63,139 nucleotides of DNA from Bacteroidia bacterium (GTDB lineage Bacteria > Bacteroidota > Bacteroidia > Bacteroidales > Paludibacteraceae). The notes under the pieces are model-generated. The model worked only from the letters and a program-made list of their open reading frames with translations. It was not told the origin of the DNA and did no database searches. Location of the stretch: contig SAAO01000028.1 in assembly GCA_009929375.1 (NCBI GenBank), forward strand, positions 1-63,139, in the 5' to 3' direction. The position numbers were made by a program, and so were the translations under genes. Shown here piece after piece: positions 2,099 through 59,031 of this stretch. Positions within the stretch are counted from its first letter, which is position 1; each line of letters starts with the position of its first letter.

Positions 2099-2103
2099 TT
2101 TTA

Positions 2104-2224
2104 TAATGTGATAATGAGGTGATGTGATAATGTGTTGATGTGATAATGTGATGATTAAAGAGGGCTCACATTTCAGCTATCTACACAATTCTCAATTTTC
2201 AATTCTCAATTCTCAATTTTTAAT
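2104..2224. repeat. Low-complexity intergenic repeats: GTGATAATG words and CAATTCTCAATT words
   Basis: Two blocks of short near-repeats fill the truB-uppP gap. Bases 2104-2156 consist of variants of GTGATAATGTG/GTGATGTG; bases 2187-2224 repeat CAATTTTCAATTCT. The first family recurs at 8360-8462, 53391-53434 and 53568-53622. They lie only between genes and have no spacer structure, so they are not CRISPR. Confidence 0.8.
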
Positions 2225-7138: not shown

Positions 7139-8362
7139 ATGAACGAACAACAAATCAACGATATACGCAAAGACTTCCCTATTCTTTCCGAAAAAATATA
7201 CAAAAAGGATTTGATATACTTCGACAATGGGGCTACCACCCAAAAGCCACGCGCTGTAGTCGAAAAAATTGAACAGGGATATTATCATACCAATGCAAAC
7301 ATTCACCGCGGAGTACATTATTTAAGTCAGAAAGCCACCGAAGCGCATGAAGAAGCCCGCGAAGTGGTAGCCGGATTCCTCGGAGCCGACAATAAAAAGG
7401 AGATTATTTTCACCCGTGGCACCACCGAAGCCATCAACCTGATTGCTTTTTCGTATGGCGAGGCTTTTTGTTCCGAAGGCGACGAAATAATTGTATCTGT
7501 CATGGAGCATCACTCCAACATCGTTCCATGGCAAATGCTTTGCGAACGAAAAAAAATGACTCTGCGTGTTATTCCGGCCAACGAAGCAGGAGAACTCGAC
7601 ATGAAGGTCTACAAAAGTCTGCTCAACGAGCGCACAAAGTTGGTTTCAGTCACTCATGTATCGAATGTGCTGGGCACTATAAATCCTGTTAAGGAAATTA
7701 TTACGCTTGCTCACGCCAACAATACACCCGTACTGATTGATGGTGCTCAGGCAGTGCCTCACATTGCAGTAAATGTAAAAGAACTCGATGCTGATTTCTA
7801 TGTTTTCTCTGGTCATAAAATTTATGCACCAACAGGAATTGGGGCTCTTTACGGCAAGGAAAAATGGCTCAATGCCATTCCTCCCTATCAGGGTGGTGGC
7901 GAAATGATAGCGACCGTAAGTTTCGAAAAAACCACTTACAACGAGCTTCCGTTTAAATTCGAAGCCGGAACTCCCGACTATATAGGCTCTACAGCTCTTG
8001 CCGCAGCTTTGAAATACGTTTCGAACATTGGCATTGATAGCATTGCTGATTACGAACACGAATTATTGCTGTATGCCACTGAAAAACTCAACGAAATTCA
8101 GGGAATGAGAATTATCGGTCAGGCACAAAACAAAAGTTCGGTCATATCATTTTTGGTAAACGACATTCACCCTTACGACATAGGCATGCTGCTCGACAAA
8201 CTCGGAATTGCTGTTCGCACAGGTCATCATTGCGCTCAACCGCTTATCGACTCACTTGGCATTCCCGGAACAGTCAGAGCGTCGTTTGCATTCTACAATA
8301 CAAAAGAAGAAATTGATATCTTTGTGGCTGCACTCAAAAAAGTGGTGGCAATGCTGAGGTGA
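7139..8362 (+). CDS. sufS: Cysteine desulfurase SufS
   Basis: PLP enzyme that takes sulfur from cysteine for Fe-S cluster assembly and passes it to SufE. The ATG at 7139 gives 407 residues, the usual SufS length; an in-frame GTG at 7097 would add 14 residues without family similarity. The PLP lysine is K227 in FSGHKIYAPTG, and the persulfide cysteine is C365 in RTGHHCAQPL, typical of group II desulfurases. The start FDNGATTQKP is also diagnostic. sufE follows after a repeat-filled gap of 143 bases. The sufBCD scaffold genes are not in the window. Confidence 0.96.
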   Translation: MNEQQINDIRKDFPILSEKIYKKDLIYFDNGATTQKPRAVVEKIEQGYYHTNANIHRGVHYLSQKATEAHEEAREVVAGFLGADNKKEIIFTRGTTEAINLIAFSYGEAFCSEGDEIIVSVMEHHSNIVPWQMLCERKKMTLRVIPANEAGELDMKVYKSLLNERTKLVSVTHVSNVLGTINPVKEIITLAHANNTPVLIDGAQAVPHIAVNVKELDADFYVFSGHKIYAPTGIGALYGKEKWLNAIPPYQGGGEMIATVSFEKTTYNELPFKFEAGTPDYIGSTALAAALKYVSNIGIDSIADYEHELLLYATEKLNEIQGMRIIGQAQNKSSVISFLVNDIHPYDIGMLLDKLGIAVRTGHHCAQPLIDSLGIPGTVRASFAFYNTKEEIDIFVAALKKVVAMLR

Positions 8363-8505
8363 TGTGATGATGTGATGATGTGGTGATGTGATGATGTGGT
8401 GATGTGATAATACGATGATGTAATGATACGATGATGTGATAATACGATGATGTGGTGATATAGAAAAAATTGTAAATTGTAAATGACTAAATTGTAAATA
8501 TAAAA
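8363..8505. repeat. GTGATG-type low-complexity repeats between sufS and sufE
   Basis: Bases 8360-8462 are near-tandem variants of GATGTGGTGATGTGATGAT and GATAATACGATGATG, with irregular 9-15 base spacing. They are followed by AAATTGTAAATGACTAAAT words (8468-8500) that run up to the sufE start. Both families recur elsewhere between genes. Confidence 0.8.
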
Positions 8506-52558: not shown

Positions 52559-53395
52559 ATGGAACTTTTCCATTTTACCTCTCACAAAGTATCGTCGATA
52601 GTGACCAGGAACTACAGTAGTTCCTTTTATCTGTCAACTACATTGCTTGAGCCGGAAATACGCACAGCCATACATGGGATTTATGGATTTGTACGTTACG
52701 CCGACGAAATTGTGGACACTTTTCACGATTTCGACAAAGTAGTACTTATCAATGAATTCGAGAAAGAGATGCAACTCGCTATTGAACGTGGAATAAGTCT
52801 CAATCCGGTGCTCGATGCTTTTCAGATTGCGGTAAACAGGTATAAAATACCTTACGCTTATATCGATGCATTTATGAAAAGCATGAAAATGGATATTTCG
52901 AAAAAAGAATATCTGAATGCTGCTGAAACTGAAGAATACATTTACGGATCGGCCAATGTGGTGGGCTTAATGTGTCTGAAAGTTTTCTGTCACCACGATC
53001 AGAAATTATTCGAAGAACTGGTGCATCCGGCAGAAATGCTTGGTTCTGCATTTCAGAAGGTAAACTTTCTGCGCGATCTGAAAGCCGACGTGGAAGGTTT
53101 GGAGCGAAGTTATTTTGCAGGATTCGACAAAAACAATTTTGATGAAAAAGCCAAAATTGCTTTGATAAAGGATATTGAAAAAGAATTTGATATTGCTCTC
53201 ACTGGCCTGCGCCGTTTGCCCGGACGTTCGCGGTTTGCAGTACTCACAGCATATACATATTACAGAACATTACTAAATAAAATAAAACGCACCGAGGCAG
53301 GCCTTATTCTGCAAAAACGAATCAGAATATCAAACACGCGAAAACTCACGCTGATGGCTAAAGCTGCTATTGAATATAAGTTGAATTTGATATGA
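52559..53395 (+). CDS. crtB: Phytoene/squalene synthase family protein (CrtB-like)
   Basis: Condenses two prenyl diphosphates head-to-head, most likely geranylgeranyl diphosphate to phytoene. The 278 residues contain the first Asp-rich motif at D49-D53 (RYADEIVDTF), YIYGSANVVGLMCL, and the second motif in VNFLRDLKADVEGLERSYF. The NFLRDL-AD-R-YF form is typical of Bacteroidota phytoene synthases rather than squalene synthases. It heads the cluster crtB-idi-cruF-acyltransferase-glycosyltransferase. No desaturase (crtI) is found in the window. Confidence 0.88.
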   Translation: MELFHFTSHKVSSIVTRNYSSSFYLSTTLLEPEIRTAIHGIYGFVRYADEIVDTFHDFDKVVLINEFEKEMQLAIERGISLNPVLDAFQIAVNRYKIPYAYIDAFMKSMKMDISKKEYLNAAETEEYIYGSANVVGLMCLKVFCHHDQKLFEELVHPAEMLGSAFQKVNFLRDLKADVEGLERSYFAGFDKNNFDEKAKIALIKDIEKEFDIALTGLRRLPGRSRFAVLTAYTYYRTLLNKIKRTEAGLILQKRIRISNTRKLTLMAKAAIEYKLNLI

Positions 53396-53636
53396 TGATG
53401 TGGTGATGTGGTGATGTGGTGATGTGGTGATTTTTTAATTTGAAAATTTGAAATTTGAAGATTTGAAGATTTGACAAAGTAACTCTTAGTAAATCAATTC
53501 AAAGTAAATATTATATACAATTGCACACTGTTACAACTCCCCTTTAGGGGGTTGGGGGCAGTGAGAATGTGGTGATGTGGTGATGTGGTGATGTGATAAT
53601 GTGATGATTTGATGATTAATTCATGATTTAAAAAAT
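53396..53636. repeat. Mosaic of intergenic repeats between crtB and idi
   Basis: Four repeat types follow one another. GATGTGGT words are at 53391-53434 and again at 53568-53622. TTTGAAAATTTGAAATTTGA words are at 53438-53475. A shortened, degenerate copy of the MITE-like element (GTAACTCTTAG start, AACTCCCCTTTAGGGGGTTG near the end) is at 53479-53565. The degenerate copy is inserted inside the GATGTGGT block, which resumes directly after it. Confidence 0.75.
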
Positions 53637-55472: not shown

Positions 55473-56560
55473 TATATATCGCCCTTTTTGTTTTAGCGTT
55501 TACTGCCATTCAGTTATTAGTGGCGCTCAGTAACCTGATTTTTCGTCCGAAGCTGAACACGCCATACAGCAGAACTGATGAACTCGTATCGGTTATGATT
55601 CCTGCGCGGAATGAGGAAACCAATATTCTGAAAATACTCACCGACCTGCAACATCAGTCACATTCGGCACTCGAAATTCTGGTTTACGACGATCAATCCA
55701 CCGATCGTACAGCCAGCCTTGTAAGCGAAATGGCGAATTATGACAAACGCATAAAACTTATTTCGTCGCAGGGACTTCCCGAAGGATGGCTGGGAAAAAA
55801 TCATGCTTGCTATCAAATGTCGCAACAGGCTACGGGAAAATACTTTCTGTTTGTGGATGCCGATGTCAGACTGGGTGGAAATGCCATTAGCACCACACTG
55901 CAACAACTCAACAAATCGAAATCGGTTTTATTATCATCCTTTCCGCGTCAGATCATGCAAACACCGGGCGAACGCGTGGTGGTTCCGATAATGAATTACA
56001 TACTGATGACTTTGCTTCCACTCACACTTGTACGTCATTCACGGTTTCCATCGCTGGCTGCTGCCAACGGACAATTCATGTTGTTCGACGCAGACACCTA
56101 TCGCAATCAGCAGCCACATTTACAAATGAAAGCCGAAAAAGTGGAAGATATCCGTATTGCCCGCTGGTTCAAGAAAAAACGCCTTCGGGTTTCCTGCATT
56201 CCCGGCACCAAAGAAATTAACTGTCGCATGTACTCAAATTACAACGAAGCCATGAATGGATTTTCAAAAAACATTGTGATGTTCTTCGGCAATTCGTACG
56301 TACTTGCATTAATGTTCTGGCTTGTTACTACTTTTGGATTTATATTTTTAATCGCAACAATGCCTCTTTTATATTTCATAATTTATGTTCTTGCTTTAAT
56401 TTTTATCAGAATAGCCGTTTCGCTTGCGAGCAGACAATCTGTTTTCAACAATATAGCCGGTATCATTCCGCAACATTACAACATGGGCCGACTACTTTTT
56501 TTGTCGCTGAAGTATAAAAATCAGGGTGCGTATGAATGGAAAGGACGCAAAATTAAGTAA
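55469..56560 (+). CDS. Family 2 glycosyltransferase in the carotenoid cluster (CruG-like)
   Basis: A 363-residue membrane glycosyltransferase. One N-terminal span is followed by a GT-A domain with VMIPARNEETNILKIL, DDQSTDRTASLV, FVDADVRLGG and a later RIARWFKKKRL, then three C-terminal hydrophobic segments. It closes the cluster and overlaps the acyltransferase by 4 bases. CruG in cyanobacteria and Deinococcus glycosylates the hydroxyl made by CruF, so sugar transfer to a hydroxylated carotenoid is likely. No terminator was seen downstream. Confidence 0.85.
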   Translation: MIYIALFVLAFTAIQLLVALSNLIFRPKLNTPYSRTDELVSVMIPARNEETNILKILTDLQHQSHSALEILVYDDQSTDRTASLVSEMANYDKRIKLISSQGLPEGWLGKNHACYQMSQQATGKYFLFVDADVRLGGNAISTTLQQLNKSKSVLLSSFPRQIMQTPGERVVVPIMNYILMTLLPLTLVRHSRFPSLAAANGQFMLFDADTYRNQQPHLQMKAEKVEDIRIARWFKKKRLRVSCIPGTKEINCRMYSNYNEAMNGFSKNIVMFFGNSYVLALMFWLVTTFGFIFLIATMPLLYFIIYVLALIFIRIAVSLASRQSVFNNIAGIIPQHYNMGRLLFLSLKYKNQGAYEWKGRKIK

Positions 56561-56726
56561 TCAAAAGGGCTTCGAAGACCGACAAACAGGCATTTCATAT
56601 ATTTTTTTCAAAGCAAATAAAAAATTTTCATCTCACTGTATTTTTATACAGGTCTGAAATTCATAGATTTGTCCGGAAAGCACAAAAAATATCGGTAATT
56701 ATACAAAAATATTTTTCGAACAGCTA

Positions 56727-56757
56727 TTGCAGAAATCAAATTTACGCCTTATCTTTG
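56727..56757 (+). promoter_or_regulatory. Full Bacteroidota-type promoter for tRNA-Asp
   Basis: TTG at 56727-56729, a 20-base spacer and TATCTTTG at 56750-56757. It closely resembles the tRNA-Tyr promoter, including CACCGC after the -7 element. Confidence 0.85.
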
Positions 56758-56799
56758 CACCGCAATTGAGAACAACGGTTCACAATAAAAAACAAACCT

Positions 56800-56876
56800 G
56801 GTGTGGTAGTTCAGCTGGTTAGAATACCTGCCTGTCACGCAGGGGGTCGCGGGTTCGAGTCCCGTCCATACCGCCA
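56800..56876 (+). tRNA. tRNA-Asp (anticodon GTC)
   Basis: Acceptor GGTGTGG (56800-56806) pairs with CCATACC (56866-56872), one G-T, then discriminator G and an encoded CCA (56874-56876). The anticodon stem CCTGC/GCAGG holds loop CTGTCAC with GTC at 56834-56836. The T-arm is GCGGG-TTCGAGT-CCCGT. The gene-poor stretch that follows raised the question of an integration site, but no 3'-end duplicate or integrase is seen. Confidence 0.96.
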
Positions 56877-57181
56877 GAGTTTAAAGAGCAATTCAGAAAT
56901 GAGTTGCTCTTTTTTTTATAAGTTCGTTGATATATTTAATAATATATCTCTAACACAATAGAACACATAGAAATGATTGAGGAAAAAGACTTAGTTCACA
57001 TAGCAAAAGTATCTGAAGATACTTTTATTGCTCTGAAATTATCCCGAATATCGGGATAATCATATGGGTTCTTAGTCTTTTCTTTTGTTTTCAAAACTAC
57101 TGTGGACTATGTGGTGAAAACATATCAATAATACTTATCGATTACTTATCAGCACACACTCCAAAAGACATTTTGTAGCAC
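56877..57181. other. Gene-poor stretch with two tight palindromes after tRNA-Asp
   Basis: Two perfect palindromes occur: AAAAGTATCT-GA-AGATACTTTT (57005-57026) and ATTATCCCGA-ATA-TCGGGATAAT (57038-57060). A short frame at 56973-57059 would encode 28 residues starting MIEEKDLVHIAKVS and covers both palindromes. It may be a gene remnant; there is no homology I can name. The T-run at 56909-56917 may end the tRNA transcript. Confidence 0.45.
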
Positions 57182-57789
57182 GGTAAAACATCCGATTGCG
57201 GTTATCAAACATCCGCTCGTTTGTATTTAAGAGACGCGCTTTCTTATTTTAGAGGCAGTTATTTACGTGGCAGATTCGTTAGCTTATAATTTTAGCCCGG
57301 AAACAGCCTTTTCGGGAAACAATTTATCAAAATTCACAAATAAATTTATCGGTTTTGTAAACAAACCTGCATTTTACAGAAACCGACGGTTATAAAATTA
57401 AGGATGGCCATTATTTTATACAGGCTGACGACTATTTTTTAAGCTTAATCGAAGCTCTGACACAAACGGGCGTCAATCCGGAGCGATCAGTTTCCACTAT
57501 AACACAAACATGCGGTTGTTTTTACAAATCAATTTCTATAACGACCCAAACGAATTCTATTCATACCCAAACAAGTTCTGTCTTGACAAGAAATAACGGT
57601 TCTCAGAGCTTTTCCCGCGGTAGTTTTACATCTGCGACATCTGTCGAAACCCAAACGAATGCCACTCCAACCCAAACGAATTCTGTTTTGATACGAACGT
57701 TTTCTGCAAAAACACAAACAAACTATTCATCGACACAAGTACCGGATACGATTTTATACAAACACAACAGAAAAGTGTGTCGATTTTGA
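57182..57789 (+). pseudogene. Decayed ORF with 21-bp/heptapeptide tandem repeats
   Basis: From 57460 to 57753 there are 14 units of exactly 21 bases, many starting ACCCAAACGAATTCT or ACACAAAC. The plus frame is open from 57361 to the TGA at 57787 and reads as heptads such as TQTNSVL, TQTNATP, TQTSSVL and TQTNYSS. No ATG occurs in this frame; it begins after a TAA. A related block at 57182-57286 gives heptads such as YQTSARL in another frame and ends in TAA, and between the blocks protein-like stretches lie in different frames (GFVNKPAFYRN, then YKIKDGHYFIQADDYF). This pattern suggests a frameshifted repeat-protein gene. The protein is not recognised; a non-coding 21-bp array is the alternative. 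Confidence 0.5.
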
Positions 57790-57890
57790 CAAATTATTTA
57801 TTCATCAACCTTATTTCTTTATCATAAAATTATTGCTATATTTCGGCAACTTTTAAATACTAACACAAACATTACAAGAAAAGAAATCAC

Positions 57891-58133
57891 ATGAAACCAA
57901 AAATTGCAAAAAGAGGACCTTATGCGGTCGACCTGGAAGCAGGCAAACATTATCACTGGTGCGCATGCGGACGAAGCGCTTCACAACCATTCTGCGATGG
58001 ATCGCACAGGGGAACAGAGTTTATTCCGCTTGCATTCACAGCCGAAGAAAGCAAAAAAGCTTATCTCTGTGGCTGCAAACAATCGCAAAATCCCCCGTTC
58101 TGCGATGGCACACATGCAAAACTGCCTGAATAA
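57891..58133 (+). CDS. CDGSH iron-sulfur domain protein with two clusters
   Basis: An 80-residue protein with two CDGSH-type motifs, WCACGRSASQPFCDGSHRGT and YLCGCKQSQNPPFCDGTH; each holds a 2Fe-2S cluster through three Cys and one His. This is the tandem bacterial/MINER-like form. Such proteins handle electrons or clusters in redox balance; the partner is unknown. It has its own bidirectional terminator. A second frame over the same bases is a shadow. Confidence 0.93.
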   Translation: MKPKIAKRGPYAVDLEAGKHYHWCACGRSASQPFCDGSHRGTEFIPLAFTAEESKKAYLCGCKQSQNPPFCDGTHAKLPE

Positions 58134-58151
58134 CCGGATATTCTGACAGCA

Positions 58152-58193
58152 AAAAATCCGTTGATATCATAAATTGAATATCAACGGATTTTT
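58152..58193. terminator. Bidirectional terminator between the CDGSH and acyltransferase genes
   Basis: AAAAATCCGTTGATAT (58152-58167) pairs with ATATCAACGGATTTTT (58178-58193) around a 10-base loop, with T following on both strands. The two genes converge here. Confidence 0.92.
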
Positions 58194-58212
58194 TTATTTT
58201 AAAATAAGCAGA

Positions 58213-59031
58213 TTATTTCATACTGTAAACTGTTTGTTTCACCCATTCAGCCCATTCAGCATGCGATTTCGATTTATCGAAAGTCTGCCAGGGTATAGGT
58301 TTACCAAATTTCAACACAAAATGTTTTCCTTTCTGTTTAAACATTTCATCGGCCAGAAACATCATTTCGACATTAAATTTAATGCCCAGAAACTTACGAA
58401 GATTGGCCAGATTATAAAAAAACTGTGAGTTGCGTCCTTCGAAATACACAGGAACCACATCGCGTTTGTATTGTACTGCTTTAGTAATAAAATTCTTTTT
58501 CCACTCAAGGTCACAAATCTGACCTTTTTGCTTACGCGAACAAATGCCTGCCGGATAAGTTACCAAATGATTTTCCGACTCGTAAAGTTGCTGCATCATT
58601 TCGGCATGTCCTTTTCCCTGCCCACCAAACTTATTTACAGGTACAAACATATCCTTCATCGGTGTCAGAAACATGAGTAAATCGTTCGAGAAGAAACGCA
58701 CTTTGCCATCGTAATGCTTACCCACCACATAACCCGTGGCTATACCATCGAGTCCACCAAGTGGATGATTACTTGCAAAAATATATTTTCCATCCTTTGG
58801 AGGAAGGTTTTCTTCGCCTTCAATAACCAGGTTAATATCCATAAACTTAAAGGCAGCCTCAATAAAGGCAATATTTTTAAGATCGGGATTTTCACGAAAA
58901 AACTTATTAAACTCATCTTCGTGCACAATACGACGAAGATAATTGACTACAAACTTTGGAACTTTGGTTTTTGGAGCACGTGCTTTCAACACGCCGGCCA
59001 CATCAATTTTTATAATGTTATTTTCGCTCAT
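58213..59031 (-). CDS. PlsC-like 1-acylglycerol-3-phosphate acyltransferase family protein
   Basis: A 272-residue protein from the ATG at 59031. The acyltransferase core has FASNHPLGGLDGIATGYVVG (H-x4-D variant with GGLD), FVPVNKFGGQGKGHAEMMQQ and LVTYPAGICSRKQKGQICDL. The SNHPLGGLDG form is typical of a Bacteroidota group related to ornithine-lipid or hemolysin acyltransferases (OlsA/PlsC-like). A membrane-lipid role is likely; the acceptor is not known. A good promoter lies at 59063-59093. Confidence 0.85.
   Translation of the reverse strand: MSENNIIKIDVAGVLKARAPKTKVPKFVVNYLRRIVHEDEFNKFFRENPDLKNIAFIEAAFKFMDINLVIEGEENLPPKDGKYIFASNHPLGGLDGIATGYVVGKHYDGKVRFFSNDLLMFLTPMKDMFVPVNKFGGQGKGHAEMMQQLYESENHLVTYPAGICSRKQKGQICDLEWKKNFITKAVQYKRDVVPVYFEGRNSQFFYNLANLRKFLGIKFNVEMMFLADEMFKQKGKHFVLKFGKPIPWQTFDKSKSHAEWAEWVKQTVYSMK

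What the first reader, a model, noticed from the sequence alone, without database searches (positions are those of the whole stretch)
57182..57789. Strict 21-bp periodic array encoding TQTNSxx heptads in a decayed ORF
Fourteen consecutive 21-base units (57460-57753) keep exact phase even where the letters have drifted, which normally means selection on a reading frame. The plus frame is open for over 140 codons but has no ATG, and a related five-unit block upstream is in a different frame and stopped. This looks like a dying gene for an unknown heptapeptide-repeat protein. As 21 bp is also two DNA turns, with CAAAC on one face of the helix in each unit, a DNA-level array that binds a protein is a real alternative.
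Basis: partly seen in the sequence, partly recalled or inferred. Interest (0 to 1): 0.72.

Follow-up and report, generated by a model that had tools for sequence, protein, structure and literature searches.

The report
Decayed 21-bp intergenic repeat array
A stretch of DNA between genes repeats every 21 letters; it looks like an old, drifted member of a family of non-coding tandem repeats seen in several relatives of this bacterium, rather than a dying gene.

Summary
The 21-bp periodicity is real: clear at 57460-57753, in phase back to about 57313, weaker to 57180. The 142-codon open frame has no ATG, no significant homologue in the searches made, and intergenic-like codon usage. Its coding-like signal (z 4.7) is rivalled by sister arrays with in-frame stops (z 4.4, 5.4).

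The main evidence is comparative. The genome is a Paludibacter. Evenly spaced stretches (2.06 Mb, five genomes, window included) hold 38 non-CRISPR intergenic arrays of period 10-60: 16 at 20-22, 5 at 42-44, 11 at 11 (9 in one species), 6 others. Units mostly differ. Two related 22-bp arrays are indel-free, which no reading frame explains; 25 of 40 query-found matches hold in-frame stops; 9 rlmN and 2 btuF-like orthologues lack the array. E. coli (200 kb) had none at 20-22 or 41-44; one congener sample had no arrays.

Best reading: an old non-coding minisatellite of a class with periods near whole helical turns. What sets the period is inferred. The gene reading is unlikely, not excluded; the lack of indels in so diverged an array is unexplained.

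The parts
57460..57753 (.). core of the 21-bp array: 14 units, consensus ACACAAACAAATTCTACTTTG, no indels
57313..57459 (.). seven weaker units in the same phase as the core
   Evidence: column correlation with the core best at zero shift, P .002 for shift 0 alone, P .042 over all shifts, one of seven blocks tried
57180..57312 (.). weak 21-bp periodicity, phase relation to the core not established
   Evidence: lag-21 match .417 over 57180-57380; best offset 1 nt, P .06-.14
57361..57786 (+). 142-codon stop-free frame without ATG, probably incidental

Best explanation
It is an old, strongly diverged member of a class of non-coding intergenic tandem arrays found in several Paludibacter genomes. 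Most arrays repeat a unit of their own of 20-22 bp (or 42-44 bp); period rather than sequence is what they share. Shown: the period excess in the stretches sampled, the variety of units, independence from a reading frame in sister arrays, and absence at the two orthologous sites tested. Inferred: such arrays arise locally by slippage or unequal exchange, turn over fast and then drift, as this one has; the unit length sits near two helical turns because copies form or persist best in helical register. The open frame is then a by-product of the unit's letters.
For: Evenly spaced stretches: 38 merged intergenic arrays of period 10-60, CRISPR removed, in 2.06 Mb from five genomes (the flagged array is one of the 38); 32 of 38 at helical-turn multiples (16 of 51 possible periods; P 2e-11 against a flat spectrum) and 21 of 38 at 20-22 or 42-44 (loci). 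Two related 22-bp arrays, L102 (18.5 copies) and L142 (8.6 copies), have 0% indels. A heptad query hit 12 of 48 genus genomes; 25 of 40 listed matches hold in-frame stops, and all 15 loci kept have a TRF row of period 21 or 42. Coding calibration on 16 sister arrays: L099 z 5.4 with 12 stops, L089 z 4.4 with 8 stops. No 7-bp or 10-11-bp sub-period on average in 16 of the 38 and 14 query-found arrays. No array within 700 bases downstream of rlmN in 9 orthologues (76-84% identity) or of the btuF-like gene in 2 (79%). E. coli, 200 kb: one intergenic array of period 10 or more, at 49.
Against: This array is more diverged than the 16 sisters tested (mean pair identity .43 against .58-.91), yet shows no indel in 14 units. 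At the ratio measured for TRF rows of period 20-22 (about 48 indel bases to 575 mismatches; 17 of 36 rows have indels) some 10 indel bases would be expected for 122 mismatches; this is rough, but hints at constraint on phase. The frame is stop-free with the best amino-acid similarity of six. One related array, L073, lies inside a 209-aa frame with ATG, and L072 and L074 have minus-strand ATG frames of 93 and 92 aa, so sisters too can be open. The own genome's 400-kb sample has arrays at 11, 11, 42 and 43 but none at 21. G001 (200 kb) has none; 17 Paludibacter-like flanks (290 kb) have one at 21 among four of period 10 or more, the others 11, 26 and 31. At the lower first threshold periods scatter widely.
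Confidence: 0.72

Rival explanations
1. A decayed gene: 57361-57786 is the remnant of a protein with TQTNSxx heptads that lost its start and upstream part.
For: No stops in 142 codons; amino-acid similarity between units z 4.4-4.7 over column shuffles, highest of six frames; 0 stops against about 3 expected, P .013 for this frame. The 33 codons before the core score gene-like, +.14. No indels despite strong drift.
Against: No significant relative in 60 genomes, viral contigs, phages, plasmids, Pfam, PHROGs or PDB. Of 11 other-genome hits at E <= .01 in 393 genomes of the order, L072, L073 and L074 proved to be 21-bp arrays, L074 with in-frame stops. Array codon usage lies below the 5th percentile of genes. 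No third-position excess of variation. Sisters with stops reach similar z.
Confidence: 0.15
2. A functional DNA array: protein sites spaced two helical turns apart on one face of the helix, phase kept by selection.
For: No indel in the diverged core; class period near two turns, including 22 bp. Dyad symmetry with P < .05 in 11 of 30 rows tested, which cover 28 arrays. Three of 23 arrays are more curved than permuted units by over 2 SD.
Against: I see no motif common to the units (by eye). No symmetry in the window array (P .77). Over 23 arrays curvature is not clearly above permuted units (mean z -.55 +/- .31). Absent from the orthologous sites tested. Flanking genes: 17 tandem, 6 divergent, 5 convergent, 1 open, of 29 rows, one locus listed twice.
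Confidence: 0.1
3. A derivative of the 7-bp word arrays that are common in these genomes (21 = 3 x 7).
For: 7-bp arrays are frequent in the same samples, 16 of 31 TRF rows of period 10-19 are of period 14, and some short TRF rows of period 21 look heptamer-like.
Against: Lags 7 and 14 are among the lowest in the window array (.192 and .200) and not raised on average in 30 arrays. 22-bp arrays exist.
Confidence: 0.03

Closest known systems
Bacterial intergenic minisatellites (VNTR-type tandem repeats; general knowledge)
   Same: Head-to-tail non-coding copies, largely species-specific, arbitrary unit sequence, position not conserved where tested.
   Different: In the stretches sampled the period is narrowly distributed (20-22 and 42-44, with 11 in one species). 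Copy-number variation within a species was not tested.
A-tract periodicity of about 10-11 bp in prokaryotic genomes (PMC3940949 and PMC4060949, passages seen; PMC516772, title and start of abstract in a listing)
   Same: Relation to the helical turn; for E. coli described as concentrated in intergenic regions (title of PMC516772).
   Different: That is a weak genome-wide A/T signal; these are tandem repeats of whole units, without a 10-11-bp sub-period on average.

Membership tests
Protein-coding heptapeptide-repeat gene | open frame with start codon | tested here: not met
   frame open for 142 codons, no ATG; one TTG inside the array at 57583
Protein-coding heptapeptide-repeat gene | coding signature (codon usage, third-position variation) | tested here: not met
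   the amino-acid similarity z of 4.7 is not specific; 33 codons outside the core score gene-like
Protein-coding heptapeptide-repeat gene | homologous protein elsewhere | tested here: not met
   of the weak hits the three that are periodic on inspection are 21-bp arrays
Paludibacter intergenic two-turn array class (defined here) | intergenic, period 20-22 or 42-44, several units | tested here: met
   score 7.3 at period 21, tally
Paludibacter intergenic two-turn array class (defined here) | absence of the array at orthologous positions | tested here: inconclusive
   no array near 19 CDGSH relatives within 1.5-kb flanks, but neighbouring genes were not found beside the acyltransferase in 21 relatives, so no true orthologous gap was available
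CRISPR array | near-identical repeats separated by unique spacers, unit about 60-80 bp | tested here: not met
   21-bp unit, no conserved repeat/spacer split; a CRISPR-like array of period 77 lies elsewhere in this genome
Known RNA family | Rfam match above its gathering score | tested here: not met
   only the tRNA in 56500-58300

The most novel reading that the evidence does not exclude
Some Paludibacter lineages carry a helix-locked satellite process: a mutational or enzymatic mechanism makes intergenic tandem arrays of arbitrary sequence whose unit is one, two or four helical turns (11, 21-22, 42-44 bp), sometimes with half-unit segments inverted, and the dominant period differs between species (11 in G005; 21-22 in P. 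propionicigenes and G066). The window array is an old product of it.
Probability: 0.3. Interest if true: 0.7.

Novelty: new variant of a known kind. Interest (0 to 1): 0.42.

Why it matters
Strict phase with drifting letters is usually read as a reading frame; here sister arrays keep phase in DNA that cannot be read, including 22-bp units. If the period is set by the helix, these genomes hold a natural record of how tandem duplications form on supercoiled DNA, testable by period alone. I saw no description of it, but the search was weak: of eight literature searches four returned no paper, and from the others I saw listings and passages of three papers.

Tried and rejected
Rfam over 56500-58300: only the tRNA above its gathering score. 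Rfam over seven sister stretches: only tRNAs and one tmRNA, no array. Pfam, PHROGs and PDB for the frames: no significant match. Viral, phage and plasmid searches: none. Column-shuffle coding test: looked strong, then was not specific on sister arrays. Dyad symmetry: in 11 of 30 rows, not in the window. The idea that the array belongs to the ~230-bp dispersed repeat beside it: rejected, as no other DNA copy of the array region was found in the genome (best other match E .2). Similarity of L072, L073 and L074 to the heptad: the query selected for it, so it says little. Papers: PMC3072083, PMC4060949 and PMC3940949 seen by passages only.

Limits: the intergenic mask is an ORF rule (120 aa with ATG from then on; an ATG was not required and the window array was then masked as ORF), not annotation. 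The score threshold of 6.5 was set after a first scan at 4.2, where weak hits scatter over many periods. The 2.06 Mb come from five genomes: G015 800 kb, G000 400 kb plus the window's 63 kb, G066 400 kb, G001 200 kb, G005 200 kb. Stretches were evenly spaced, but G015 and G066 are genomes that had hits, and contigs of G000, G066, G001 and G005 were ones named by earlier hits. Arrays within 450 bp were merged, the CRISPR region of L133 dropped and periods below 10 not counted. The flat-spectrum P is only a yardstick. L072-L074 and L083-L097 were found with a periodic query and are not in the tally (L083 and L101 are one locus; L101 is counted from the sample). Some units are shared by eye: L102/L142, L101/L157/L117, L084/L087, L086/L095. 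Of the 11 order hits outside the own genome (L072-L082), DNA rows were printed for L072-L075, L078 and L082; L076, L077 and L079-L081 were not checked for arrays. In one search, 10 rlmN loci (one is WB4's own) and 4 btuF-like loci were examined; rlmN paralogues at 61% identity or less and L292 were not. tRNA scanning covered 12 of 19 CDGSH loci.

Full report
The window is from a Paludibacter genome (Bacteroidales). A scan with the acyltransferase beside the array found an unnamed Bacteroidales MAG (83%) and then mostly Paludibacter MAGs as nearest relatives. The congener G015, one contig of 3,685,504 bp, has exactly the published length of P. propionicigenes WB4 (PMC3072083, passages seen).

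The observation. Lags 21, 42, 63, 84 and 105 stand out in 57460-57753. The core is 14 units with no indel and mean unit-to-consensus identity .585. The periodicity is longer than reported: in phase back to about 57313, with a 21-bp signal to 57180. The stop-free plus frame and its heptads are there, without ATG. The related five-unit block in another frame is only weakly supported.

Is it a gene? For: the frame is the best of six by amino-acid similarity, has no stops, and the 33 codons before the core look gene-like. Against: array codon usage is intergenic-like, third positions are not more variable, and no significant homologue was found in 60 relatives, viral contigs, phages, plasmids, Pfam, PHROGs or PDB. 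When the same test was run on 16 sister arrays, L099 reached z 5.4 with 12 stops in frame and L089 z 4.4 with 8, so the signal is not specific for coding; shared descent of units probably produces it.

What it resembles. The order-wide search (393 genomes) gave 12 genomes with weak hits, own included; among the other eleven, L072, L073 and L074 proved to be 21-bp arrays, L074 with in-frame stops. L073 lies inside a 209-aa ATG frame, and L072 and L074 have minus-strand ATG frames of 93 and 92 aa, so open frames over such arrays are common and not in themselves telling. Searching the genus with the L072 heptads hit 12 of 48 genomes; 25 of 40 listed matches contain stops, and all 15 kept loci have a TRF row of period 21 or 42, with mostly different units. 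Because that query is itself periodic, I took evenly spaced stretches. In 2.06 Mb, 38 merged non-CRISPR intergenic arrays of period 10-60 fall as follows: period 11, 11 arrays; 20-22, 16; 42-44, 5; others 6 (loci). By genome: window 21; G000 11, 11, 42, 43; G015 sixteen arrays, thirteen of them at 20-22 or 42; G066 four at 21; G005 thirteen, nine at 11 and one at 44; G001 none. Outside the tally: 17 Paludibacter-like flanks (290 kb) hold arrays of period 11, 21, 26 and 31; 63 other Bacteroidota flanks (1.04 Mb, all around one gene) hold none at 20-22; 200 kb of E. coli hold one at 49.

Properties of the class. Indel-free 22-bp arrays exist (L102, L142, related to each other), which no reading frame could keep. 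Phase is not always strict: 17 of 36 TRF rows of period 20-22 have indels. There is no 7-bp or 10-11-bp sub-period on average. Some units look partly inverted relative to sister units: L101 against L157, the flips in L147, and L117 (by eye); 11 of 30 rows have dyad symmetry at P < .05, the window has none. The flanking genes scanned are ordinary or without a Pfam match (10 proteins) and orientation shows no preference. Positions turn over at the two sites tested: none of 9 rlmN orthologues and neither of 2 btuF-like orthologues has an array where WB4 has one. At the window locus, neighbouring genes were not found beside the acyltransferase in 21 relatives, and 19 CDGSH relatives lack an array within 1.5 kb.

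Reading. Best supported: an old non-coding minisatellite. Shown: periodicity, the period excess in the sample, frame independence of sisters, turnover at two loci. Inferred: local amplification followed by drift, and a helical reason for the preferred unit length. The absence of indels in so diverged an array is not explained and leaves room for constraint on phase. The gene reading keeps about 15%.

Score. The array itself is ordinary; the narrow period of its class is the unusual part and is why I do not score it lower.

Noticed in passing
window 56917-57148: A ~230-bp dispersed repeat between tRNA-Asp and the array: at least 40 places in the own genome, own copy included, some partial, 78-94% identity (one search scored 40 of 87 candidates), relatives in G015, G022 and G027, stem-loops and imperfect terminal inverted repeats seen by eye in 11 aligned copies, no Rfam match. 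Looks like a MITE or a structured RNA element.
   Followed up: partly
G000:C56:52-3557 (L133): CRISPR-like array, about 45 copies of a 77-bp unit with a conserved repeat of about 47 bp.
   Followed up: no
L117:11533-12204 and L157:12599-13270 (P. propionicigenes): Two paralogous 223-aa proteins (58% identical, no Pfam match at E .001) each have an array 146-164 bp upstream, with units that look related by eye.
   Followed up: partly
G005:C77 (L303-L312): A congener whose intergenic arrays of period 10 or more are mostly 11 bp (9 of 13 in 45 kb of non-coding DNA), none at 21.
   Followed up: partly
window 2103-2155, 8360-8459, 53388-53431, 53567-53616: Recurrent 8-bp TGATGTGA-type intergenic arrays, the first three followed within about 40 bp by 7-, 8- or 15-bp AATTTGA- or AATTCT-type arrays.
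   Followed up: no
L147:2072-2260 (P. propionicigenes): 21-bp array in which the near-palindrome GCAAAACTTTGC appears in both orientations at the same phase; strongest dyad signal and most curved of 23 by the model.
   Followed up: partly
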